Source: Stomorhina lunata (taxonomy: Eukaryota > Arthropoda > Insecta > Diptera > Rhiniidae). Taken from it: a stretch of DNA of 64,000 bases. The stretch's first letter is position 1. Each line of letters begins with the position of its first letter. The position numbers and the translations under genes were made by a program. The stretch covers positions 161,148,806 to 161,212,805 of the forward strand of contig OW121740.1 in NCBI GenBank assembly GCA_933228675.1. Direction: 5' to 3'. A model generated the notes under the pieces. It saw only the letters and a program-made list of their open reading frames with translations. It made no database searches and was not told the DNA's origin. Shown piece by piece: positions 5,462-64,000 of this stretch.

Positions 5462-6880
5462 CACAGTGGTTTACGGACGCTTTTTTTTGGAAATAATTCT
5501 GTAACTTTTGAACGACTGGAGATATTTGAATGAAATTTGACATGGTGGTAGTCAAGGAGTATTTGAGTTGGTTTTTAAAAGCACTGGTCCATGAGGGGTC
5601 GGGAGAGTGATTGATGGACCTTCAAAGTTGGTCACCTCGGGTGTTCGATTTTTTTAAAAATTCGCCAAAAATCCATTTATGTATGGATTGAAAAGAAATT
5701 TTAAACTTAAGTTGTCCTTGAGAAGATCTACAAAAAATATGCTTAAATGTGTAGGTTATCTCCTTTGGATTTCGAGATATTTGGGTAAAAAGGAATTTTT
5801 AGGTTGATTTTTTACCTCTTTTTTTAAGCTTTTTTTGATCTGGTGGACGCATCTGAGGACCAAAAATTTTTTAAGAATATTCTTTAAATTTGTAATAAAA
5901 TTCTGAATAATTTTTGTGCAAGTTAGTTATAGAAATCTTCTTTTGTTTAAAAGTTAAAAATATTCAAAGTTGAAACTTACAAAAAATTTCGCTTTTTTTT
6001 TAGTTTTTCCCCAAAAGATAGCTATATTTTTTCACTAATAAAAAAATATTTTCTTAAGAAACATAAAAAGATTTTTAAAGTTTTTAAAAGAAAACATAAT
6101 GAGAATGCGTATAAAACAAATTTCTTGCTAATTGGACTTTTGGTCCTCGCACATGTCCTCTCCAAAAAATGGCAATTTGTAAAAAAAAAAATTAGTTTAA
6201 ACAAAAATTTCTCAAAAGGCAAAGCACCGATTTGAAAAAAATTATAATGTTCATATTTTCCAATATATCTGTTATTGATTAGAAAAGTTTTTTCTGAAAC
6301 GCGCTGCAAATAGAGACAGTGTTGCCATATTTGTAAAAAAACTCATTTTTTGAAACACCTTTTTCCCCAGTTGGGAATTGGGGAATTTTTAAGTTAAAAT
6401 TGGGAATTTTTTTTAGTCTATTGCTTTTACATCTTATTGGTCTACATTACTACAAAATTTCATTGTAATATCTTTATCCATGTCATTTCCACAGAATATC
6501 AAAGATTAAAAATATTTTCCTTAAAAAAGCAGAAAAACAATTTTTTTTTGTTTTACGATACAAAGTGTAAAAAAAGTAACGCACTTAAAAAAAACTTTTA
6601 CTTAGTGCTAATCTCCTAGTCTTTCCCGATCTAATGATACTAAACATGTATATAAAGCATTAATACCGAGTCTTAAAAAACTCTGAAAACTTTGGCCCCC
6701 GTAGCATTTTTACACTGTTTATTTAAATATAAGTGATGAATTTGTGCATATAAAGTTAATTATCATACTCAAATATTTCACTATTTTTAAGATGACAATG
6801 ATCCTTCGCTAATAAACAAATATTTTCTTCAAAAAGATATAAATAGTTTTTTATTTTTTTAAAGAAAACATTATAAGAAT
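5462..6880 (+). repeat. Left long terminal inverted repeat of the Transib element
   Basis: Pairs with 9572-10963. Outer bases are CACAGTGGTTTACGGACGC, followed by a T8 run. Identity is very high over most of the arm and weakens after about 6830. The 95-codon minus frame at 6022-6309 and the 60-codon plus frame at 6437-6619 reappear mirrored in the right arm with zero or one residue changed. That reflects the inverted repeat and is not evidence of genes. Confidence 0.92.
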
Positions 6881-7433
6881 GACTTAAAAAAATTTTATTC
6901 GATTTTGCCTTTTGTTCCAAGCTAAAAAATAAAATTTTAGTAAAAGATTCTAAATAAGTAAGTACGAGTAAGGCACCGATTTTGATAACAGTGTAAAGGT
7001 AATATATCCATAATTTGTAGCAAAAGTTTAATTAGAAGAGTACTTTTATAGTAACAGTGTGACAATTTATTTAAAATAAGATTTAAAGGCATTTTTCCGG
7101 TATTTAAAATTGGTGTATTTGAAAAAATTGCAAAATTATGTTAAGGTTATAAAATGTTTTTTAATGTGAAAGTTAATGCAATAGGTAAAAATTGTTACAA
7201 CTTGGGTTTTTCATAATGGTCAGAAAGGATATGGTTACTCACCTCCATACAGGTAGGTTTTACGAGACGCACATATTGGTTGAGTTATATATGCACCTAT
7301 TTTTAGAGGTAAAAAATACATTAATTCATTGATTTCTTTATTATTCTTTGGATACAGGTATATATAAAAAATGTTTTTTTTTAATATAAAAAAGAAAGTT
7401 TTAAATGTAACTGCTATTAACAGTTAAAACATC

Positions 7434-8897
7434 ATGGCTATAACATTGGAATTTAAAGTGTTGTGCGATATTCTTTTTGAACAACCAAGCAGTTCGAGAG
7501 CAGAAAAAATTAAAATAATCATGCGATATGCTAAAAGTCAAACTAACTCCATGATTCTCAATAGTAAGGAAGACAAAGTCGTAAAATTTGTAAAGTTATT
7601 TGAACTTAAAATTAAGTCGGTTAATTACTGTTTAAAAAGATTTGAATCTAAATTTAAAGACTGGCTGAAGGACTCAATTGAGCTTAAAACTTCTGGTGCT
7701 GGAGCCCCTCTAAAAAACTATGATGATCTCGGAGAAAGATCTAAAAAGATGCGATTATCCGAAGTTCTTTCTACTCATTCGGATACTGAAATCAAAGATT
7801 CCTTTAAGGAAGTGCTCAAACGAAATAATCAACCAGCTGAAGCTAAACAAATAGCAGATATTCTCCCAGAGGCTTCTCCTAAACGTCTTAAGCGAATTAT
7901 TAAGAGTATACCAACTCCTTCTTCTCAATCAGAATTTTCGGAGGAAGAAGCACTTGCTCTTATGCTCGAGTTGAAATTGAGTAAAAATAAATATATTAAA
8001 CTCTGTAAGGCATTACGAGACAAAGGACACTCAATTTTACCAGGATATAATGCGTTATTAAAAACCAAAAAAAACTTAATACCAACAAACGTGATAGGAG
8101 ACGAAAGTGCATCTGTGGATTTATCAAAATTATTGGAAAATACGGCATCAAGGCTGATATCTACTACATTGTCTGAAGAAGAAGCCAAGAAACTTGACAA
8201 CAAGGACTTAACTTTAATATGTAAATGGGGATGTGACGGTTTATCTGGATTACCGGAATACAAACAATCAACATCTCATCAGAACACAAATGACTACAGA
8301 AGCGTTTTTATGGCATCCCTAGTACCACTAAGATTAAGAAAGAATCGTTCTGAACCATCCACATCAAAAGAGCGTACTGAATATGTGTGGGTTAACACAT
8401 CTCCAGGATCAAAGGCATTTTGCAGACCGATCAGATTCGAATATTTAAAAGAAAATGCAGCAAGCACAAAAAATTGGGTTGATGATATCAAATATTCAAT
8501 AGACAATTTGAGTCCAGTCTGCATAGACATACATGGATATTTGATTAATGTAAATTTTGAGCTTCAATTGACAATGATAGATGGAAAAGTAAGCAACGCT
8601 ATAACGGAAACCCATTCAACTTGGAAATGCTCATTATGCGGAAAGAAGAAATCGGAATTTCTACAAACTTCAGAAGATGCATCAGCTAGTACTGCAATTA
8701 ATCAAGAGGTTCTGGAATTTGGTATATCGCCCCTACATGCACGTATCCGATTTTTAGAATTTATGCTACATATAGCATATGATCTGAAATATAGGAATAT
8801 ACCTGATAATCAGCTAAAATCCGTGAGAAATAATAAGGAACTGATTGAAATGAGATCCAGTGAAAAAAAAGGATTCAGGAAGAATTCAAAACTATGA
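7434..8897 (+). CDS. Transib transposase (RAG1-related), N-terminal and central part
   Basis: 487 codons; start ATG with an adenine-rich upstream context (AAACATC). This is the catalytic DNA transposase that cuts at the element ends. By-eye comparison with RAG1: D268 in CDGLSG matches the first catalytic Asp (RAG1 CDGMGD). D383 in MIDGKV lies 16 residues before C399-x2-C402 and matches the second catalytic Asp, which in RAG1 lies 19 residues before the same Cys pair of its zinc site. The block at 432-449 (SPLHARIRFLEFMLHIAY) matches the RAG1 DALHCDIG region. The reading frame is lost in an A8 run (8863-8870): codons after K479 are out of frame, and the true continuation is in the frame of the 8894-9442 ORF. 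The start could be slightly different, because the N-terminus is poorly conserved in this family. Confidence 0.9.
   Translation: MAITLEFKVLCDILFEQPSSSRAEKIKIIMRYAKSQTNSMILNSKEDKVVKFVKLFELKIKSVNYCLKRFESKFKDWLKDSIELKTSGAGAPLKNYDDLGERSKKMRLSEVLSTHSDTEIKDSFKEVLKRNNQPAEAKQIADILPEASPKRLKRIIKSIPTPSSQSEFSEEEALALMLELKLSKNKYIKLCKALRDKGHSILPGYNALLKTKKNLIPTNVIGDESASVDLSKLLENTASRLISTTLSEEEAKKLDNKDLTLICKWGCDGLSGLPEYKQSTSHQNTNDYRSVFMASLVPLRLRKNRSEPSTSKERTEYVWVNTSPGSKAFCRPIRFEYLKENAASTKNWVDDIKYSIDNLSPVCIDIHGYLINVNFELQLTMIDGKVSNAITETHSTWKCSLCGKKKSEFLQTSEDASASTAINQEVLEFGISPLHARIRFLEFMLHIAYDLKYRNIPDNQLKSVRNNKELIEMRSSEKKGFRKNSKL
8863..8870 (+). other. A8 frameshift site inside the transposase
   Basis: Reading switches here by -1 (one base re-read). 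Immediately after it, the downstream frame gives KRIQEEFKTMTG, which runs into the conserved C-terminal part. The run contains a canonical A-AAA-AAA slippery heptamer. It could be a lost A (mutation or homopolymer sequencing error) or programmed -1 frameshifting. No obvious stable downstream hairpin stands out. Confidence 0.85.
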
Positions 8898-9442
8898 CGG
8901 GTCTAAACATAGACAAACCACTTGTAGGATATGGCAGTACAAACGATGGTAATACGGCCAGGCGATTCTTTGAAAATTATGAAACAACTTCAAAGATTAC
9001 TGGAATTGATGAGGAAGTTCTTCGTAAATGTTACGTAATATTATCGGCAATAAATAGCAAATATCAAATAAATGCTGAAAAATTTCGTATACGACATTTG
9101 TATCACTGGAAAGAAATTACACCAACAGTTCATAAAGTCCTTCAACATGGTCGTGAAATAATTGAATCAAATCTTCTCCCACTTGGTGAACTGACAGAAG
9201 AGGCCCAGGAAGCGCGGAATTCAGATTTCAAGTATATCCAACTATTTAATACCAGAAAATGCTCAAGAAAATCGCAAAATCAGGATCTAATAAATTATCT
9301 CTTGTTGTCTTCTGATCCTGCTCTATCAACGATAAGAAAGAAATGGTGGAGCAGTTATACAAAAACTTCTGAAAACGAACACCTGGAAGAGGTTCTTGAT
9401 ATAATAGATTGTACTGATTATTTTACTGAAAATAAAAATTAA
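8894..9442 (+). CDS. Transib transposase (RAG1-related), C-terminal part
   Basis: 182 codons from the first ATG, but homology begins upstream of it, from 8870. Residues 17-27 (NDGNTARRFFE) match RAG1 MNGNFARKLM. H80 and H85 in VHKVLQHG match the zinc-binding His pair of RAG1 (FHKTLAH). E106 in QEARN, 21 residues after H85, matches the third catalytic residue E962 of RAG1. With the first part the transposase would be about 669 residues, a normal Transib length, with D268, D383 and E106 (second frame) as the DDE triad. The 4-base overlap with the first frame (ATGA at 8894-8897) looks like bacterial coupling but is coincidental in a eukaryotic transposon. The frame ends 130 bp before the right arm. 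Confidence 0.9.
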   Translation: MTGLNIDKPLVGYGSTNDGNTARRFFENYETTSKITGIDEEVLRKCYVILSAINSKYQINAEKFRIRHLYHWKEITPTVHKVLQHGREIIESNLLPLGELTEEAQEARNSDFKYIQLFNTRKCSRKSQNQDLINYLLLSSDPALSTIRKKWWSSYTKTSENEHLEEVLDIIDCTDYFTENKN

Positions 9443-9571: not shown

Positions 9572-10963
9572 ATCCTCATGATATTTTCTTTAAAAAAATA
9601 AAAAAATATTTGTTTGTTATCGAAGGATCATTGTCATCTTATAGTGAAATATTTGAGTATGATTATTAATTTTATATGCACAAATTCATCACTTATATTT
9701 AAATAAACAGTGTAAAAATGCTACGGGGGCCAAAGTTTTCAGAGTTTTTTAAGACTCGGTATTAATGCTTTATATACATGTTTAGTATCATTAGATCGGG
9801 AAAGACTAGGAGATTAGCACTAAGTAAAAGTTTTTTTTAAGTGCGTTACTTTTTTTACACTTTGTATCGTAAAACAAAAAAAAATTGTTTTTCTGCTTTT
9901 TTAAGGAAAATATTTTTAATCTTTGATATTCTGTGGAAATGACATGGATAAAGATATTACAATGAAATTTTGTAGTAATGTAGACCAATAAGATGTAAAA
10001 GCAATAGACTAAAAAAAATTCCCAATTTTAACTTAAAAATTCCCCAATTCCCAACTGGGGAAAAAGGTGTTTCAAAAAATGAGTTTTTTTACAAATATGG
10101 CAACACTGTCTCTATTTGCAGTGCGTTTCAGAAAAAACTTTTCTAATCAATAACAGATATATTGGAAAATATGAACATTATAATTTTTTTCAAATCGGTG
10201 CTTTGCCTTTTGAGAAATTTTTGTTTAAACTAATTTTTTTTTTTACAAATTGCCATTTTTTGGAGAGGACATGTGCGAGGACCAAAAGTCCAATTAGCAA
10301 GAAATTTGTTTTATACGCATTCTCATTATGTTTTCTTTTAAAAACTTTAAAAATCTTTTTATGTTTCTTAAGAAAATATTTTTTTATTAGTGAAAAAATA
10401 TAGCTATCTTTTGGGGAAAAACTAAAAAAAAAGCGAAATTTTTTGTAAGTTTCAACTTTGAATATTTTTAACTTTTAAACAAAAGAAGATTTCTATAACT
10501 AACTTGCACAAAAATTATTCAGAATTTTATTACAAATTTAAAGAATATTCTTAAAAAATTTTTGGTCCTCAGATGCGTCCACCAGATCAAAAAAAGCTTA
10601 AAAAAAGAGGTAAAAAATCAACCTAAAAATTCCTTTTTACCCAAATATCTCGAAATCCAAAGGAGATAACCTACACATTTAAGCGTATTTTTTGTAGATC
10701 TTCTCAAGGACAACTTAAGTTTAAAATTTCTTTTCAATCCATACATAAATGGATTTTTGGCGAATTTTTAAAAAAGTCGAACACCCGAGGTGACCAACTT
10801 TGAAGGTCCATCAATCACTCTCCCGACCCCTCATGGACCAGTGCTTTTAAAAACCAACTCGAATACTCCTTGACTATCACCATGTCAAATTTCATTCAAA
10901 TATCTCCAGTCGTTCAAAAGTTAAAGAATTATTTCCAAAAAAAAGCGTCCGTAAACCACTGTG
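9572..10963 (-). repeat. Right long terminal inverted repeat of the Transib element
   Basis: Reverse complement of 5462-6880. It ends GCGTCCGTAAACCACTGTG at 10963, immediately followed by the CGTCG duplication. The inner limit is soft because the last ~50 bp are diverged and T/A-rich. Mirrored open frames at 9806-9988 (minus) and 10116-10403 (plus) are shadows of the arm. Confidence 0.92.
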
Positions 10964-34978: not shown

Positions 34979-36260
34979 TAAAGAGTGTTCTAAAAAAAAT
35001 ATGCATTTACTATTTTAGACAAAATTTATCCATAGTGCAAGAAATAATTTATTTTTTGATCAAGTTAGTTTCTATAGATATGTCAGATACTATTATTTTA
35101 GAAATTATTAATTTTGAATAGTTATTTTAATCAAAATGGGCTGCGAAAAAAAAGTTCGTGAAAATATAGTTAAAAATCCGTCATGGACTTTTAAAAAAAA
35201 TAGCTAAAAATTTGAAAGTTGACCCTCGAACGGTTTCTAATGCCATCAGACGGTATAAGGAAAACCTGAGCATTGAAAGAAAACCTGGATCAGGGAGGAA
35301 ACAAAGTCCTACAGATATTGGTAAGGCAAAAGAAGTCGAGCGACTCTTTCGAAGAGCGCCTAACACTTCTTTAAGAAAAGCAGCTCGTACGGTGAAATGT
35401 TCTACGAATTTTGCACATAGAGTCAAAGCTTATGCTGGACTGAAGACATACAAAGTCCAAAAGGTTCCAGATCGCAATGCTATAAAGAACTTAGAAGCAA
35501 AAAAACGAGCGAAAAAATTGAAGTCTGATTTCATAAAAAAATACACCTGTTGTGTGATGGATGATGAAACATATGTACTGGCAGACTTTTCTCAACTTCC
35601 TGGTCAAGATTTTTATGTTGCTGATAAACGGGGCAATGTTCGGCAAGAGTTTCGCACAAAAAAACAAACAAAATTACCTAAGAAGTTTCTCGTGTGGCAA
35701 GCTATTTGCAGTTGTGGCAAAAGAAGTAAAGTATTTGTGGCATCTGGCACAATAAACACAGAAATTTATATAAAGGAGTGCCTACAAGAGAGCCTTTTTA
35801 AGAGAGCACAGAGTGACTACATTTTTTTGGCCCGATTTGGCATCATGTCATTATGGAAAAAAGGCACTTGAGTGGTACTCAAAGAATAATGTCATTTTTG
35901 TACCACGAGAGGCAACTCCACCTAACTGTCCAGAACTTCGGCCTGTGGAAAGGTATTGGGCTCTGGTAAAAAAGGAATTGAAGAACACAGGAAAGATTTC
36001 CAGGAACATGTCCAATTTTAAGCGCAGATGGAACACATGCTTCAAAAAGGTATCAGAAGCAACTGTGAAATCTTTAATGGGAGGGTTTCCGAAAAAAGTC
36101 GATAATTTTGCAAAACCCGAGTACTAAGTAAACATTTTAATGCTAAATGATTTTGTATAATATGTCATTATATTTGCGTATTTTGTAGAGTTTTTATATT
36201 AAAAGTTTTGATTTTTATTTAAGAAAATCCAACTACAATTTTTATTTAGAGCACTCTTTA
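34979..36260 (+). mobile_element. Tc1/mariner element (DD37E type) with TA duplication
   Basis: The element proper is 34981-36258 (1278 bp). The ends read AAGAGTGTTCTAAA on the left and, inverted, AAGAGTGCTCTAAA on the right: one mismatch in 14. TA lies directly outside both ends (34979-34980, 36259-36260), the standard Tc1/mariner target duplication. A transposase fills most of the interior. Element size, end type and gene layout are all typical of the superfamily. Confidence 0.93.
35136..36127 (+). pseudogene. Tc1/mariner DD37E transposase, two homopolymer frameshifts
   Basis: The first ATG at 35136 gives MGCEKKVRENIVKNPSW. The frame then breaks in an A8 run (35193-35200; one extra A) and continues as IAKNLKVDPRTV, a helix-turn-helix region for end binding, followed by a GSGRKQSPTD linker. 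The first catalytic Asp lies in VMDDETYV (35560-35565). The frame breaks again in a T7 run (35822-35828; one extra T). It then gives WPDLASCHYG, with the second catalytic Asp at 35834-35836, and PVERYW, with the Glu at 35948-35950. Thirty-seven residues separate them, so this is the DD37E group known from insects. Without the two extra bases the protein would be about 329 residues, the usual length. As written, no full transposase can be made. Confidence 0.92.
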
Positions 36261-46690: not shown

Positions 46691-47085
46691 AAAATTTATT
46701 GAAAAATTAGGTTTAATCAGGCTTGAGTTCATTTAACTTTCAAATTATTAATTTTGAAAATTTTTTTGATAAGTAATTGTGGAGAAAAACTGAAAAAATT
46801 ATTTTTGAACGCGGCTCAGTGGATTGCAATTTCTGTCCCGCCACAGGACGTCATCAGCACTTAGCGCCCTCGACCACAGTCGAGTTGTCAAATTGCAGAG
46901 ATAATCATCAATTTAACTCATTGAGTTTGATCGAACATCACTACGTTTAATTGATTGTGTTACTTTTCAAAAAAATTTCAAAAAAATTTTCAAAATTAAT
47001 AATTTGAAAGTTAAATGAACTCAAGCCTGATTAAACCTAATTTTTCAATCAATTCTAAAGTTCGAATAATAAATTCCCAAATAAA
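46691..47085. mobile_element. Ribozyme-bearing inverted-repeat element, copy b
   Basis: About 70-bp inner arms, AATTAGGTTTAATCAGGCTT on the left and AAGCCTGATTAAACCTAATT on the right, are continued on the right by AATTCTAAAGTTCGAATAAT and CCCAAATAA. They flank a markedly GC-richer body with the hammerhead-like motif and the perfect hairpin CTCGACCACAGTCGAG. The element sits in the middle of satellite C. No open frame; non-autonomous. Confidence 0.8.
46814..46865 (-). ncRNA. Hammerhead ribozyme-like motif (minus strand)
   Basis: Minus strand, 5' to 3'. Stem I strand is GCTAAGTG, followed by the core CTGATGA. Stem II is GTCC/GGAC with a short loop, then GAAA. A short stem III (ATTGCAAT) ends with T16.1, then C17, then the stem I partner CACTGAGC. 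All catalytic-core positions fit. Weak point: the closing pair of stem II would be C-A instead of the usual G-C, and stem I has one mismatch. Cleavage would fall after the C before CACTGAGC. Confidence 0.6.
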
Positions 47086-47089
47086 GAAA

Positions 47090-48545
47090 AATATTTATAT
47101 AAAAATTTCTATCGAAAATTTTTCATAAAAAAATTTCTAGAGACAATTTTTCATATAAAAATTTCTACAGAAAACGTTAACCCATTTAAAAATTTTTTTA
47201 AAAAATTGTATACCGAAAAATTTTTTATAAAATATATTTATAATATAGTAACATTAATTTTTTATTAATTTTTTTATAAAAAATATTCTATAAAAATTTC
47301 TACATCGAAAAATTTTCTATAAAAAATTTTAATATCAAAAATTTTCTATAAAAATTTTTATACCAAAAATTTTTATAAAAACTTTTCTATAAAAAATTTT
47401 ATAGCGAAAAATTTTCTATAAAAAATATTTATACCAAAAAATTTTTCATAAACAATTTTTATACCAAAAATTTTGCATAAACAATTTTTATACAGAAAAA
47501 TTTTTATAAACAAATTTTCACATAAAAATTTCAATTTCTATAAAAAGTTTCTCATACAAAAATTTCTATACAAAATTTTTCATATTAAAATTTTTCTAAA
47601 ATATTTTTCATCTAAAAATTTTTCTAAAATATTTTTCATCTAAAAATTTCTACAAAAAAATTTTTTATATAAAAATTTTTATATAAATTTATTAAATTTA
47701 TTTTAATTTCTATAGAAAGTTTTACATATAAAAATATCAACAGAAAATTCATTCTTCTAGAAAAAATGTTCCTTTAAAAATTTCTATGGACAATTTTTCA
47801 TATTAAAATTTCTATAAACATTTTTTTATGAAAAAATTTCTATAGAATATGTTTAATATAAAAATTTTAATTTTTTTAAGGAAGTTTATATAAACATTTT
47901 AAGAAAATTTGTCATCTTAAAATTTTTATAAAAAAAATTTTCATATAAAAATTTCTATACAAAATTTTTCTTATAAAAATTTCTACTGAAAATTTTTCAT
48001 ATTAAAATTTCTATAGACATTTTTCTAATAAAATTTCTTTAGAAAATTTTTCATATAAAAATGTCTATAAAATTTTTTCATCTAAAAATTTCTAAAGAAA
48101 ATCTTTCATCTAAAATTTCTATTTAAAATTTTTCATCTAAAAATTTCTTAAAAAATTTTTCAAAAAAATTTCTACAGATAATTTTTCAAAAAAAAAAAAA
48201 ATTTATAGAAAAATATTTCTATAAAAATTTCTATAGAAAATGTTTGATATAAAAATTTCTATCAAAAATGTTTCATAAAAAAAATTCTGTAGAAAATATT
48301 TCATATACAAATTTCTATAGAAAATATTTTATTTAAAAATTTATATAAAATTTGTCTATATAAAAATTTCTATAAAACATTCTTCTTATAAAAATTACTA
48401 AAGAAATTTTTTCAAAAAAAATTTTAAACCGAAAAATTTTGTATAAAAACATTTTATAACGAAAAGTTTTCTTTAAAAATATTTTTATACTAGAAATTTT
48501 CTATAAAAAATTTGAATACCGAAAAATTTTCTACAAAAAGGCTTT
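47090..48545 (+). repeat. 28-bp satellite C, array 3 (diverged)
   Basis: Continues the same satellite on the other side of the inserted element, again mixing ACCGAAAAATTTTCTATA-type and standard units. Confidence 0.92.
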
Positions 48546-49760: not shown

Positions 49761-52330
49761 AAAAACATTTAATACAAAATATTTCATATTAAAATTTTCA
49801 TTTCAAAATTTCTATAAACAATTTTATAAAAATTTTATAAAATTTTTTATAGAAAACTTTTGAAATAAAAATCTCCACAGAAAATTTTTCATATAAAAAT
49901 TTCTAAAGAAATTTTTTCAAACAAAAATTTCTACAGAAAATTTTTTATCTATAGAAAATTTTTCATATAAAAACTTTTAGAAAATCTCTTATAAAAAATT
50001 TTTATAGAAAATTTTTCATCTAAAATTTTGTATAGAAAATTTTTCATCTAAAATTTTGTATAGAAAATTTTTCATCTAAAATTTTGTATAGAAAATTTTT
50101 CATCTAAAATTTGGTATAGAAAATTTTTCATCTAAAATTTTGTATAGAAAATTTTTCATCTAAAATTTTGCATAGAAAATTTTTCATCTACAATTTTGTA
50201 TAGAAAATTTTTCATTTTTCAAAATTTCTATTGAACTCACACAAAATTTTCATAATAAAATTTTTCATAAATAAAATTTATTTCAAAATTTCTACAGAAA
50301 ATATTTCATATAAAAATTTCTATAGAAATATACTCACACAAAAATCATCAATAGAAAGATTTTATATAAGAATTTCTATAAAATACATTTTTAATATAAA
50401 AGTTTCTATAGAAAATGATTCAAATAAAAATTTCTACAGAAAAATTTTGATAATAAAATTCCTATAAAAAATTTTGTATATAAAAATTATTATAGAAAAT
50501 TTTTCAAATAAAAATTTCTATCGAAAATTTTTTATATACAAATTTCTACAGACAATTTTTGATATAAAAATATCCACGAAAACTTTTCTTATAAAATCTC
50601 TATAGACATTTTTTGATATAAAAATGTCTATAAAAATATTTTCAGACAAAAACTTCTATAGAAAATTTTTAATTTAAAGATTTCTTTAAACAAATCTTTA
50701 TCTAAAAATTTATATAGAAAATTTTTCATCTAATATGAAAATTTTACATATAAAAATATCTATGGAAAATTTTTTATATAAAAATTTCTATGGAAAAATT
50801 TGTATATAAAAATTTCTATGGAAAAATTTTTATACAAAAATTTCTGTAAAAAATTTGTCATATCGAAAATTTTTCATATAAAAATTTGTATAAAAAATTC
50901 TTCATACCAAAAATTATTCATATAAAAATTTCAATAGAAAATTGAATATGTAAAAATTTCTTTAGAAAATTGCTGATATAAAAATATCTATAGAAAATGT
51001 TTCATATAAAAATTTCTATAGAAATTATTGCATATAAAAAATTTTATAGAAAATTTTTCAAATAAAAAATTTTATAGAAAATTTTTCAAATAAAAAATTT
51101 TATAAAAAATTTTAAAATAAAAATTTGTACAGAAAATTGTTTATATAAAAATTTAAAAAAAATTTACATACAAAAAGTTCTATAGAAAATTTTTCATCTT
51201 AAAATGTCAACAGAAAATTTTTCATCCAAACATTTCTATGAAAAATTGTTCATATACAATTTTCTTTAAAAAATTTTATAGATATAAAAATTTCTATCGA
51301 AAATTTCTTTTTGAAGGAAAATTTGTCATATAAAAATTTCTTTAGAAAATTTTTCATCAAAAAAATTCCATATAAAAATTTCTATAGAAAATTTTTCATA
51401 TAAAATTTTTTCATATAAAAATTTCTAAAGAAAATATTCATCTAAAAATTTCCATAGGAAATTTTTCATATAAAAAATTGTTAACATAAAAATATCATCT
51501 AAAAACGCCTATAGAAAATTCATCGTCCAAATATTTCTATAGAAAATTTTTCATCTAAAAATTTCATTAGAAACTTTTTATTCAAATTTTAATAGAAAAT
51601 TTTTCATATAAAAATTTGTGCAGAAAATTTTTGATATAAAAATTTCTGTAGAAAATTTTTCATATAAAAATTTTCACAGAAAATTTCTTAAATAAAAATT
51701 TCTATAAAAATTTCTGTAAAAAATTTTTTATGTAAGAACTTCTTTAGAAATTTTTTTATATAAAATTTCTATAGAAAATTTTTTATATAGATATTTTCCA
51801 TATCAAAATTTCTATAAGAAATGTTTCATATAAAAATTTCTATAAAAAATTTTTCATCAAAAAATTTTTACTGAAAATTTTTTTATCGAACAATTCCTGT
51901 AGAAAGTTTTTCATAAAACAACTTCTATAAAAAATTGTTAAATCATCTTATAATTTCTATAGGAAATTTTTGATTTAAAAATTTCTACAGAAAATAAAAA
52001 TTTCTCTAAAAAAATTTTCTATAAAAATTTCTATAAAAAAAAATGTTTATATAAAAATTTTTATCAAAAAAATTTGTCATATAAAAATAGAAAAATTTTT
52101 AAATAAAAATTTGTAAAAAATATTTTTATAGAAAATTTTTCATATCAAAAACATTTTTCATGTAAAAATTTCTACAGAAAATTTTTCATATAAAAATATT
52201 TATAGAAAATTTTTTACGTAAAAATTTCTATGGAACATTTTTTATATAAAAATTTCTATAGAAAATTTTTCATATAAAAATTTTTCTATAAAAAATTTTT
52301 CTATAGAAAATTTTTCATATAAAAAGTTTT
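49761..52330 (+). repeat. 28-bp satellite C, array 4 (~90 units)
   Basis: Mostly diverged units. A short uniform block at about 50000-50215 has the variant CATCTAAAATTTTGTATAG repeated about eight times, a recent local expansion. The 78-codon frame at 50231 is repeat translation. Confidence 0.93.
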
Positions 52331-52364
52331 ATCAAAAAATAACAAATTAGTTGGGATGTAAATA

Positions 52365-52762
52365 TTATTCAAAAGAAGTGTATTTGCATTTGATCCCAAA
52401 CCTGTTACATTTATTTATTAATGTAACAGATCAATTTATTGATAAAAAGCCAAAAAATGTTTGCGGAGAAACTGAAAAATGTTTGTTTTTGTTCAGTCGA
52501 TAATCTACGCTTTTACTTTTGGTTTATGAACATAATTCTTAATAGTTATGTTTGTAAATTTAGTAATAATGCGAGGTTTTCGATCTGTCTAAATTGGGGA
52601 TAATCCTCCTGAAGAGATGGCTTAACCAACCATCGAAACGCGTCGAGGAATTTGGTTTCTCCGCAAACATTTTTTGGCTTTTTATCAATAAATTGATCTG
52701 TTACATTAATAAATAAATGTAACAGGTTTGGGATCAAATGCAAATACACTTCTTTTGAATAA
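52365..52762. mobile_element. Ribozyme-bearing inverted-repeat element, copy a
   Basis: Perfect inverted arms of 108 bp (52365-52472 and 52655-52762), starting TTATTCAAAAGAAGTGTATT inward and ending at GCGGAGAAAC. The 182-bp body is less AT-rich at its right end and holds a hammerhead-like motif. It is inserted in satellite C. Identical arms imply recent insertion or continual repair of one arm by the other. No transposase and no convincing target duplication. Confidence 0.88.
52604..52649 (+). ncRNA. Hammerhead ribozyme motif (plus strand)
   Basis: Stem I is TCCTC (52604-52608) with GAGGA (52645-52649). The core CTGAAGA (52609-52615) fits C3 U4 G5 A6 N7 G8 A9. Stem II is GATGG (52616-52620) with CCATC (52630-52634) and loop CTTAACCAA, including the usual G10.1-C11.1 closing pair. 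GAAA follows at 52635-52638. A minimal stem III (AC-GC-GT) ends with T16.1 at 52643, and C17 is at 52644, where cleavage would occur. Very short stem III is known from the minimal hammerheads of Penelope-like retroelements. Read by eye, not folded. Confidence 0.75.
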
Positions 52763-53675
52763 AAAGTTTTCTATAAAAAATTTTTCATACAAAATTTGTT
52801 CATATAAAAATTTTTCATACAAAAATTTTTCATATAAAAATTTTTATATAGAAAATTTTTCATATAAAAATTTTGCTATAGAAAAGTTTTCATATAAAAA
52901 TATTTTTAGAAAATTTTCGACAATTTTTCATACGTTTTCTCATATAAGTTTTCTATACAAAATTTATCATATTAAAATTTCTATAGAATATTTTTCATAT
53001 TAAAATTTCTATAGAATATTTTTCATATAAAATATTTTTCATGTAAAAATTTCTATAGAATATTTTTTATATAAAAATATTTATAGAAAATTGTTTACAT
53101 AAAAATTTCTATGGAATATTTTTCATTTAAAAATTTCTATGGAATATTTTTCATTTAAAAATTTCTATGGAATATTTTTCATTTAAAAATTTCTATGGAA
53201 TATTTTTCATTTAAAAATTTCGATAGAAAATTTTTTATATAAAAATTTCTACAGAAAATTTTTTATATAAAAATTTCTACAGAAAATTTTTTATATAAAA
53301 ATTTCTATAGAAAATTTATCTTAAATTTAATATAAAAAATTTTTCATCTAAAAATTTCTTTAGAAAATTTTTCACATAAAAATAAAGTAGAAAGTTTTTT
53401 TATACAAAGAATTCTTCAGAAAATTTTTCATCGAAAATTTCTATAAAAAATTTTTCATCTCAAAACTTGTATCAAAATATCTATAGAAAATCTTTCATAT
53501 AAAAATTTCTAAAAAAAAATTTTTACAAAAATTTATATAGAAAGGTTTTTATATAAAAATTTTCATGGAAAACTTTTTACATAAAAATTTCTACGAAAAT
53601 ATTTCATCTATAGTAAATTTTTCTTATAATTATTCTTTTTAAAAATTTTCGTAGAAAATTTTTCTTATAAAAAAT
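52763..53675 (+). repeat. 28-bp satellite C, array 5
   Basis: Standard and variant units. ATTTCTATGGAATATTTTTC is repeated about four times near 53110-53220. The 91-codon frame at 52728 is repeat translation. Confidence 0.93.
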
Positions 53676-63180: not shown

Positions 63181-63187
63181 TTTTTAA

Positions 63188-63500
63188 TTATTTGGAAATT
63201 AATTATTCGAACTTTAAATTGAATTAATTGAAAAATTAGGATTTATCAGGCTTGAGTTCATTTTTAATTTTCAAATTATTAATTTGAAAATTTGAAAGTA
63301 ATAATGTGGAGAAAAACTGAAAAATTATTTTTGAACGCGGCTAGTGGATTGCAATTTCTGTCCCGTCACAGGACGTCATCAGCACTTAGCGCCCTCGACC
63401 ACAGTCGAGTTATCAATTGCAGAGATAATCATCAATTTAACTCATTGAGTTTGATCGAACATCACTACGTTTAATTGATTGTGTATTCTCCTATTACTTA
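63188..63500. mobile_element. Ribozyme-bearing inverted-repeat element, copy c (right arm missing)
   Basis: Left arm TTATTTGGAAATTAATTATT through GAAAGTAATAATG, then the same body as copy b with the ribozyme-like motif and the CTCGACCACAGTCGAG hairpin. After GATTGTGTATTCTCC and ATTTTGC the sequence diverges from copy d and no right arm follows. The 60-codon frame at 63292 is body translation. Confidence 0.8.
63340..63390 (-). ncRNA. Hammerhead ribozyme-like motif (minus strand), copy c
   Basis: Same motif as at 46814-46865. The stem II loop differs by one base (TGTGACG against TGTGGCG), and stem I is GCTAAGTG with CACTAGC, leaving a single bulged A. The core CTGATGA, GAAA and C17 are unchanged. 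Confidence 0.6.
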
Positions 63501-63653
63501 TTTTGCTCGATCTTTTCACTTGCCGTTGGCATGTAGAGAAGAACAAGACTTTTTGGTTTGATGCTATTTATAGAATAGTAACAGTGTTCACATATGTAAG
63601 TAAATTACATGATTGTATGTGTGTGTAAATGCAACGTGCCCTTTGCTTTTTAA
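63501..63653. other. Spacer between two element copies
   Basis: About 150 bp, less AT-rich (CACTTGCCGTTGGCATG), present between copies c and d only. It may be target DNA or part of a longer element version. Confidence 0.5.
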
Positions 63654-64000
63654 TTATTTGGAAATTAATTATTCGAACTTTAAATTGAATTAATTGAAAA
63701 ATTAGGATTTATCAGGCTTGAGTTCATTTTTAATTTTCAAATTATTAATTTGAAAATTTGAAAGTAATAATGTGGAGAAAAACTGAAAAATTATTTTTGA
63801 AAGCGGCTAGTGGATTGCAATTTCTGTCCCGCCACAGGACGTCATCAGCACTTAGCGCCCTCGACCACAGTCGAGTTAATTTAACTCATTGAGTTTGATC
63901 GAACATCACTACGTTTAATTGATTGTGTATTCTCCTATTACTTATTTTGCACATTATTACTTTCAAATTTTCAAATTAATAATTTGAAAATTAAAAATGA
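63654..64000. mobile_element. Ribozyme-bearing inverted-repeat element, copy d, cut by window end
   Basis: The left arm repeats copy c, 466 bp downstream. The body has a ~30-bp deletion just after the CTCGACCACAGTCGAG hairpin. The right arm begins near 63952 (ATTATTACTTTCAAATTTTC) and runs off the window. Confidence 0.85.
63806..63856 (-). ncRNA. Hammerhead ribozyme-like motif (minus strand), copy d
   Basis: Identical in core and stems to copy c; the stem II loop is as in copy b. The motif is retained although the body next to it carries a deletion. Confidence 0.6.

What the first reader, a model, noticed from the sequence alone, without database searches (positions are those of the whole stretch)
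52365..52762. Small inverted-repeat element carrying an intact hammerhead ribozyme
Perfect 108-bp inverted arms enclose a body with CTGAAGA, a 5-bp stem II, GAAA, a minimal AC-GC-GT stem III, C17 and a 5-bp stem I in exactly hammerhead order (52604-52649). Hammerheads are established in Penelope-like retroelements and retrozymes, not in MITE-like elements with perfect terminal inverted repeats. Either this is a rearranged Penelope-type terminal repeat or an undescribed ribozyme-bearing non-autonomous element.
Basis: partly seen in the sequence, partly recalled or inferred. Interest (0 to 1): 0.9.

Follow-up and report, generated by a model that had tools for sequence, protein, structure and literature searches.

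The report
Ribozyme retroelement copies inserted back-to-back
The perfect inverted repeat is most likely not a DNA transposon but two pieces of one small ribozyme-carrying retroelement inserted back-to-back, with the end pattern left by Penelope-type elements, which bears on the open question of what moves such parasites.

Summary
In detail: 108-bp arms, 100% complementary, and a complete minimal type I hammerhead (HHR) at 52604-52649; a strict descriptor hits once here and 0 times in 1000 random windows. Rfam scores nothing. The MITE reading fails: the genome (728 Mb, inferred fly) holds many copies of a ~465-bp non-coding monomer, F1, and the 'TIRs' are two F1 fragments joined head-to-head. 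F1 3' ends fall at two sites 33 nt apart (61 of 78); 13 of 13 fully resolved fold-backs (of 21) have one end at each, as have 6 of 8 resolved in the older subfamily. That is the published Penelope-like element (PLE) 'tail' signature. The genome has a PLE with an 832-aa frame, an HHR-like motif, two-site ends and head-to-head structure. The HHR is the most conserved stretch between two F1 subfamilies. A second, unrelated HHR-like repeat, F2, has similar end geometry and forms opposed tandem arrays. Best reading: a non-autonomous retrozyme-type element copied by PLE machinery. Against: no stem covariation, HHR not the minimum-energy fold. Cleavage and mobilisation are untested.

The parts
52325..52472 (-). 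F1 fragment, monomer m335 to m187; its outer end is the longer (T, 'tail') end. Contains the left 'TIR' 52365-52472
   Evidence: 98.7% identity over 149 nt to the L011 monomer
52466..52762 (+). F1 unit, monomer m463-m465-m1 to m295; its outer end is the shorter (S) end. Contains the right 'TIR' 52655-52762; overlaps the left fragment by 7 nt at the head-to-head junction
   Evidence: 99.3% identity over 298 nt
52604..52649 (+). Minimal type I hammerhead motif; predicted cut after C17 at 52644 (m176)
   Evidence: conserved between subfamilies
52638..52643 (+). Palindrome ACGCGT (stem III strands plus the 2-nt loop), able to pair with a second copy
   Evidence: sequence; kept in 31 of 36 aligned copies
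52319..52330 (+). Left copy of a possible 12-bp target-site duplication ATAAAAAGTTTT (right copy 52759-52770); overlaps the element ends, not significant
   Evidence: 49 of 506 mismatched flank pairs reach 12 or more
63181..63950 (-). F2: second HHR-like repeat, about 1.65 tandem units of 466 bp, outer end at T (m2 175)
63942..64000 (+). F2: start of the inverted partner, running off the window end
46693..46960 (-). F2 fragment with HHR-like motif, outer end at S (m2 134)
46984..47091 (+). F2 inverted partner, outer end at T (m2 175)
   Evidence: 86.8% identity
40811..40895 (-). Short F2 fragment, outer end near T (m2 172)

Best explanation
52325-52762 is one insertion of a non-autonomous, non-coding retroelement (F1, monomer ~465 bp) of the metazoan retrozyme type. 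Proposed route: F1 transcripts carry a minimal type I hammerhead whose palindromic stem III probably works as a dimer; monomers or multimers, perhaps circularised, are bound by a PLE reverse transcriptase/GIY-YIG endonuclease, which cuts AT-rich DNA and starts cDNA inside the RNA at two sites, S (m~300) and T (m~333). Both cut target strands act as primers, as a rule one product starting at S and one at T; the two cDNAs meet head-to-head, often at microhomology, leaving a perfect inverted repeat with one 'tail'. Shown here: the repeat family, the motif and its conservation, the S/T ends, the one-of-each pattern, copies longer than one monomer, and a PLE in the same genome with a like end geometry. 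Inferred: cleavage, dimerisation, a circular or multimeric RNA template, dual priming, and that a PLE (this one or another) is the mobiliser.
For: 3' ends: 61 of 78 copies or fragments end at S (38) or T (23), 6.0 expected. Fold-backs: 13 of 21 have both ends resolved and all 13 are S|T; chance 2.6e-5 to 8.3e-5 if ends were independent. Older subfamily, my reading of the rows: 9 head-to-head pairs, 6 S|T, 1 S|S, 1 T|T, 1 unresolved. Copies cross the monomer junction, the longest 639 nt (L043). Published PLE features that match: 30-40-bp tail on one of two inverted terminal repeats, head-to-head inversion, AT-rich targets, two internal RT starts (PMC3846280, PMC11167929). The genome's PLE: 832-aa frame with RVT_1 and GIY-YIG, outer ends 38 nt apart in a head-to-head pair, other copies ending near 331-333 or 372-374. 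Distances from HHR cut to S/T: F1 124/157, F2 125/166, PLE 81/121 nt (my arithmetic). HHR: 1 difference in 46 columns between subfamily consensuses versus 40 in 254 (P 0.006) or, without gap columns, 30 in 244 (P 0.026).
Against: No Rfam score. HHR stems show no covariation. The HHR fold is 6.5 kcal/mol less stable than the free fold of the isolated 76 nt and 3.2 less in the unit. No excess of 5' ends at the HHR cut (7 of 78, P 0.11), so cleavage of the template is not seen. F1 and the PLE share no notable sequence, and neither a tail motif nor a stem at site S in F1, F2 and PLE each taken alone beats chance. Two of eight resolved older fold-backs break the one-of-each rule, although in these the arms are 77 and 110 bp apart. 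In vitro, Anolis PLE insertion did not need HHR cleavage and start sites did not differ between strands in bulk (PMC11167929). Target-site duplications are inconclusive.
Confidence: 0.78

Rival explanations
1. F1 is the terminal repeat of an ORF-bearing PLE that I did not recognise, so the copies are truncated remnants of an autonomous element.
For: PLE-type ends and inversion; most copies are short; only the best-scoring candidates were examined (40 of 373; 40 of 3749).
Against: 11 of 12 GIY-YIG matches are one PLE family without F1 sequence; several copies run through m465 back to m1 with no ORF between (L010, L011, L014, L019, L023, L043, L045, L046), so the repeating unit is 465 bp.
Confidence: 0.1
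2. A retrozyme-type element moved by a LINE or other reverse transcriptase; the resemblance to PLE ends is coincidence.
For: Retrozymes elsewhere have no proven mobiliser; PMC7229834 names LINEs or PLEs.
Against: Two fixed internal 3' ends, one tail per fold-back and head-to-head inversion in F1, with like geometry in F2 and in the genome's PLE.
Confidence: 0.08
3. A MITE or other DNA transposon with 108-bp TIRs.
For: Perfect arms; TA on both sides in the sequence.
Against: Copies do not share the two arms; arm lengths and junctions vary, outer ends are unequal, single-arm copies are common.
Confidence: 0.02
4. The hammerhead motif is a non-functional passenger or a conserved motif with another role.
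For: No Rfam score, unfavourable fold, no covariation, no 5' ends at the cut.
Against: 0 of 1000 random windows; most conserved 46-column window between subfamilies; HHR-like motifs at a like place in F2 and the PLE.
Confidence: 0.15

Closest known systems
Metazoan non-LTR retrozymes (Cervera and de la Pena 2020, PMC7229834; opening part, passages and Discussion seen)
   Same: Short non-coding AT-rich repeats with type I hammerheads, in tandem, many copies, proposed circular RNA intermediates, PLEs named there as candidate mobilisers
   Different: F1 is mostly single or fold-back rather than long tandem, has a 2-bp palindromic stem III like the minimal HHRs of PLEs, and shows two fixed 3' ends with a tail; I found no report of these ends in retrozymes
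Penelope-like elements, Penelope/Poseidon clade (PMC3846280 passages; PMC11167929 passages and main-text section)
   Same: Minimal HHR, tail of 30-40 bp, head-to-head inverted terminal repeats, AT-rich targets
   Different: F1 has no ORF and no sequence match to the genome's PLE
Short nonautonomous Penelope elements of heliconiine butterflies (PMC6685494, three passages seen)
   Same: Non-autonomous elements assigned to Penelope in an insect
   Different: The word hammerhead does not occur in that paper; their structure was not compared
Plant LTR retrozymes (from statements in PMC7229834 and PMC7761336)
   Same: Non-autonomous retroelements with hammerheads and circular RNA
   Different: Type III HHRs in LTRs, movement attributed to Gypsy elements
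MITEs (general knowledge)
   Same: Small non-coding element with inverted repeats
   Different: Arms here are not fixed terminal repeats

Membership tests
Type I hammerhead ribozyme | Conserved core CUGANGA / GAA / H17 with stems I, II and III in order | tested here: met
   core identical in 23 of 36 aligned copies, and five of the other 13 differ only at position 17 by my reading
Type I hammerhead ribozyme | Covariance-model score | tested here: not met
   the same search also gave no hammerhead for the PLE and F2 motifs
Type I hammerhead ribozyme | Stem pairing supported by compensatory changes | tested here: inconclusive
   94.6% of cells paired but no two-sided change, equal to shuffles
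Type I hammerhead ribozyme | Self-cleavage | not testable with these tools
   needs an in vitro assay
Metazoan retrozyme | Non-coding repeat of a few hundred bp with type I HHR | tested here: met
   465-bp monomer without long ORF; published range ~170-400 nt, so slightly longer
Metazoan retrozyme | Tandem head-to-tail copies | tested here: inconclusive
   F1: partial tandems up to 639 nt only; F2: multi-unit arrays
Metazoan retrozyme | Circular RNA | not testable with these tools
   no RNA data
PLE-type insertion product | 30-40-bp tail on one of two inverted ends | tested here: met
   33 nt; 13 of 13 resolved fold-backs; 6 of 8 in the older subfamily
PLE-type insertion product | Head-to-head inversion | tested here: met
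   21 fold-backs among 78 copies or fragments
PLE-type insertion product | Target-site duplication of about 8-10 bp as in the examples of PMC3846280 | tested here: inconclusive
   satellite flanks confound
Autonomous PLE | ORF with RT and GIY-YIG | tested here: not met
   F1 monomer has none; no PLE-type ORF noticed in the ORF lists of the fetched F1 loci
MITE | Fixed terminal inverted repeats shared by copies | tested here: not met

The most novel reading that the evidence does not exclude
Animal hammerhead retrozymes are satellites of PLEs: two sequence-unrelated families in one genome use the PLE's two-site internal priming, with both cut target strands primed and one product starting at each site. 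When the template is an HHR-made RNA circle this gives opposed head-to-head tandem arrays (F2); when synthesis stops early it gives perfect inverted repeats that pass for MITEs (F1).
Probability: 0.5. Interest if true: 0.78.

Novelty: new variant of a known kind. Interest (0 to 1): 0.62.

Why it matters
What mobilises animal retrozymes is left open in the papers I read; PLEs were proposed from shared type I HHRs, tandem arrangement and co-occurrence (PMC7229834 Discussion). The two-site end rule gives evidence at the level of single insertions and a direct test: give F1 or F2 RNA to a purified PLE protein and map the cDNA starts. It also warns that a perfect inverted repeat can be a fold-back retroelement product rather than a MITE, and that a covariance-model scan alone would have passed over these motifs.

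Tried and rejected
MITE/TIR reading: rejected by the copies. Rfam hammerhead support: none. Target-site duplication: the window's 12-nt match is reached by 49 of 506 mismatched flank pairs, and same-locus flanks share a 14/28-bp AT-rich repeat, so neither the long matches nor the control settle it. A common tail motif (TCGAATAA in F2 and PLE): chance level, P 0.20 two-way and 0.43 three-way. A stem spanning site S: chance level in F1, F2 and PLE taken singly (P 0.32, 0.35, 0.16); across 28 F1 copies one of its 7 pairs has a two-sided change in 7 cells (8 of 500 shuffles reach that), probably one event, while the number of such pairs is not above shuffles (497 of 500). Excess of 5' ends just after the HHR cut: 7 of 78, P 0.11. 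HHR stem covariation: none. The exact HHR in IMG/VR: 0 matches. Not answered at any try: RF00163 over the genome, the HHR-pattern searches, the PLE protein over the genome; so there is no genome-wide copy number of intact motifs.

Print searches. No title or abstract start listed there, and no passage I read, describes PLE-type tails or head-to-head structure in retrozymes; I did not read most listed papers. Seen: PMC7229834 (part 1 of 6 of the text, passages, Discussion), PMC11167929 (passages, main-text section in two parts), PMC3846280, PMC7761336 and PMC6685494 (passages only). Cervera and de la Pena 2014 is not held; Lunse et al. 2017 was seen only as a reference title.

Rows dropped before counts: and one search left out HSPs under 40 nt and hits overlapped by a better hit (more than half on the same strand, more than 80% on either). 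Searches left out 6 of 36 rows as belonging to neither group (L016:1620, L025, L027, L036:8416, L037, L038), a grouping I made by eye. The loci behind searches are L009-L046 (38, chosen from the hits) and the window, not a random sample.

Full report
OBSERVATION. The window lies in a 728-Mb, 104-contig genome. Arms 52365-52472 and 52655-52762 are exact reverse complements. A loose descriptor hits once in the window and once in 100 Markov windows; the strict one hits once in the window and 0 times in 1000 random windows. Rfam reports no hammerhead, nor for two other HHR-like motifs of this genome.

COPIES. The 398-bp element gave 105 matches in its own genome, from 40 scored of 373 first-look candidates. 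Many cover only element positions ~104-398. Flanks show that the sequence goes on in both directions, and in L011 a 465-bp unit is followed head-to-tail by part of another. I number the monomer m1-m465 on L011; the hammerhead cut lies after m176. A query from an older subfamily had 3749 first-look candidates, 40 of them scored.

WHAT THE INVERTED REPEAT IS. In monomer terms the window element is m335 to m187 on the minus strand (52325-52472) joined to m463-m465-m1 to m295 on the plus strand (52466-52762), with a 7-nt overlap. The 'TIR' is the part that both fragments cover; the left fragment runs about 40 nt further out. In L009-L046 and the window I found 78 copies or fragments: 38 end 3' at S (m286-308), 23 at T (m325-337), 17 elsewhere, with 6.0 expected at S and T together. 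Of 21 head-to-head fold-backs, 13 have both ends resolved and each has one S and one T; seven have S and one has T with an unresolved other end. Independent ends would give 13 of 13 with a probability of 2.6e-5 to 8.3e-5. In the older subfamily I read nine head-to-head pairs off the rows: six S|T, one S|S, one T|T (the last two with 77 and 110 bp between the arms; one of the six S|T pairs has 117), one unresolved. Junctions differ between copies and 15 of 21 overlap by at least 1 nt. 5' ends cluster at m417-m5 (29 of 78, 9.1 expected) but not at the ribozyme cut (7 of 78, 4.0 expected).

COMPARISON WITH PLEs. Passages of PMC3846280 describe a 31-bp tail optionally present on one of the inverted pLTRs and call head-to-head the most frequent inverted arrangement. 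PMC11167929 reports that the Anolis PLE protein cuts AT-rich DNA, extends both strands, starts cDNA inside the RNA, and that the 30-40-bp tail is the stretch between two RT start sites. The preferred start is 111-118 nt into the ORF and the HHR cut at +26, so 85-92 nt apart by my subtraction. That paper saw no start-site difference between strands in bulk, and HHR mutants still inserted in vitro. F1 matches the tail and the inversion and suggests a stricter one-of-each pattern per insertion.

A PLE IN THE SAME GENOME. A GIY-YIG search gave 12 matches at E<=0.1, all 14 candidates scored. L047 holds an 832-aa frame (RVT_1) and, head-to-head with it, a 633-aa frame; the outer ends of the pair differ by 38 nt within the terminal repeat. 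L048 holds a relative with parts repeated at 2798 bp. The seven further matches fetched are the same family; five of them reach the end region, three ending near 372-374 and two near 331-333. HHR-like CTGA-A/T-GA..GAAA motifs precede the ORF in L047 and L048 and occur in five of those seven; there stem II is preceded by an extra U. The twelfth match was not fetched. I infer a fly host. Apart from short chance-level hits and one F1 fragment inserted nearby, the PLE and F1 share no sequence.

HAMMERHEAD STATUS. Between the consensuses of 22 young and 8 older copies the 46-nt motif has 1 difference against 40 in 254 flanking columns (P 0.006); without gap columns, 1 in 46 against 30 in 244 (P 0.026). 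Of 255 sliding 46-column windows only four have so few, starting at columns 142-145, the first of which is the motif itself. In 36 copies the core is identical in 23, and five of the other 13 differ only at position 17 by my reading; ACGCGT is kept in 31. Against: no stem covariation, and the HHR fold is not the minimum-energy fold. A 2-bp stem III closing a 2-nt loop is unlikely in a monomer, but ACGCGU can pair with a second copy; PMC7761336 says PLE minimal HHRs may cleave as dimers (passage). The first 344 nt of the L011 unit fold far better than shuffles (z -6.35, 0 of 100 shuffles).

F2. The window holds a second, sequence-unrelated repeat with an HHR-like motif, tandem at 466 bp (63181-63950, minus), and a fold-back at 46693-47091 with ends S (m2 134) and T (m2 175). 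Its position 10.1-11.1 is a C-A mismatch, so activity is doubtful. In the genome (159 matches shown from 40 scored of 1561 candidates, list cut) F2 units ~468 bp apart form opposed head-to-head runs, for example C12:254025-257152 (-) and 257204-260150 (+), C2:50763499-50766955 (-) and 50766954-50770628 (+), and two on C1. By my reading, two further F2 fold-backs (C7:33784182, C10:120251836) have one S-like and one T-like end. Opposed multi-unit runs are what priming from both target strands on a circular or multimeric template would give; that is inference.

VERDICT. A non-autonomous retrozyme-type element copied in PLE fashion, a new variant of a known kind. Shown: family, motif, conservation, end rule, a coexisting PLE with like geometry. 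Not shown: cleavage, circular RNA, the identity of the mobiliser.

Noticed in passing
   Followed up: partly
window 7428-9442: Transposase ORFs matching PDB 6pqn 'DNA-mediated transposase'; from recall, this is the Transib/RAG1-like family
   Followed up: partly
L019:1955-2328 region and L021:6861-7235 with upstream: Two F1 copies stop at CGACG next to CCACTGTG ends, and L021 has Transib-like ORFs upstream: probably Transib insertions into F1 with a 5-bp CGACG target
   Followed up: partly
window 6022-6342 (-) and 10083-10403 (+): Near-identical 106-aa frames in inverted orientation on both sides of the Transib-like ORFs; the same frame occurs upstream of F1 in L019
   Followed up: no
window 35170-36127: Frames with weak, below cut-off matches to HTH_23 and DDE_3, probably a Tc1/mariner-like remnant
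   Followed up: no
window 51800-52330 and 52760-53400: The insertion sits in an AT-rich repeat with 14/28-bp periodicity
   Followed up: no
L011-type F1 copies, m1-m344: The RNA strand folds far better than shuffles (z -6.35), closed by long stems around the HHR and up to the tail
   Followed up: partly
L024:158-1639 (-), L044:3-2054 (-): Long open frames beside F1 copies (494 and 684 aa), probably other retrotransposon ORFs; not identified
   Followed up: no
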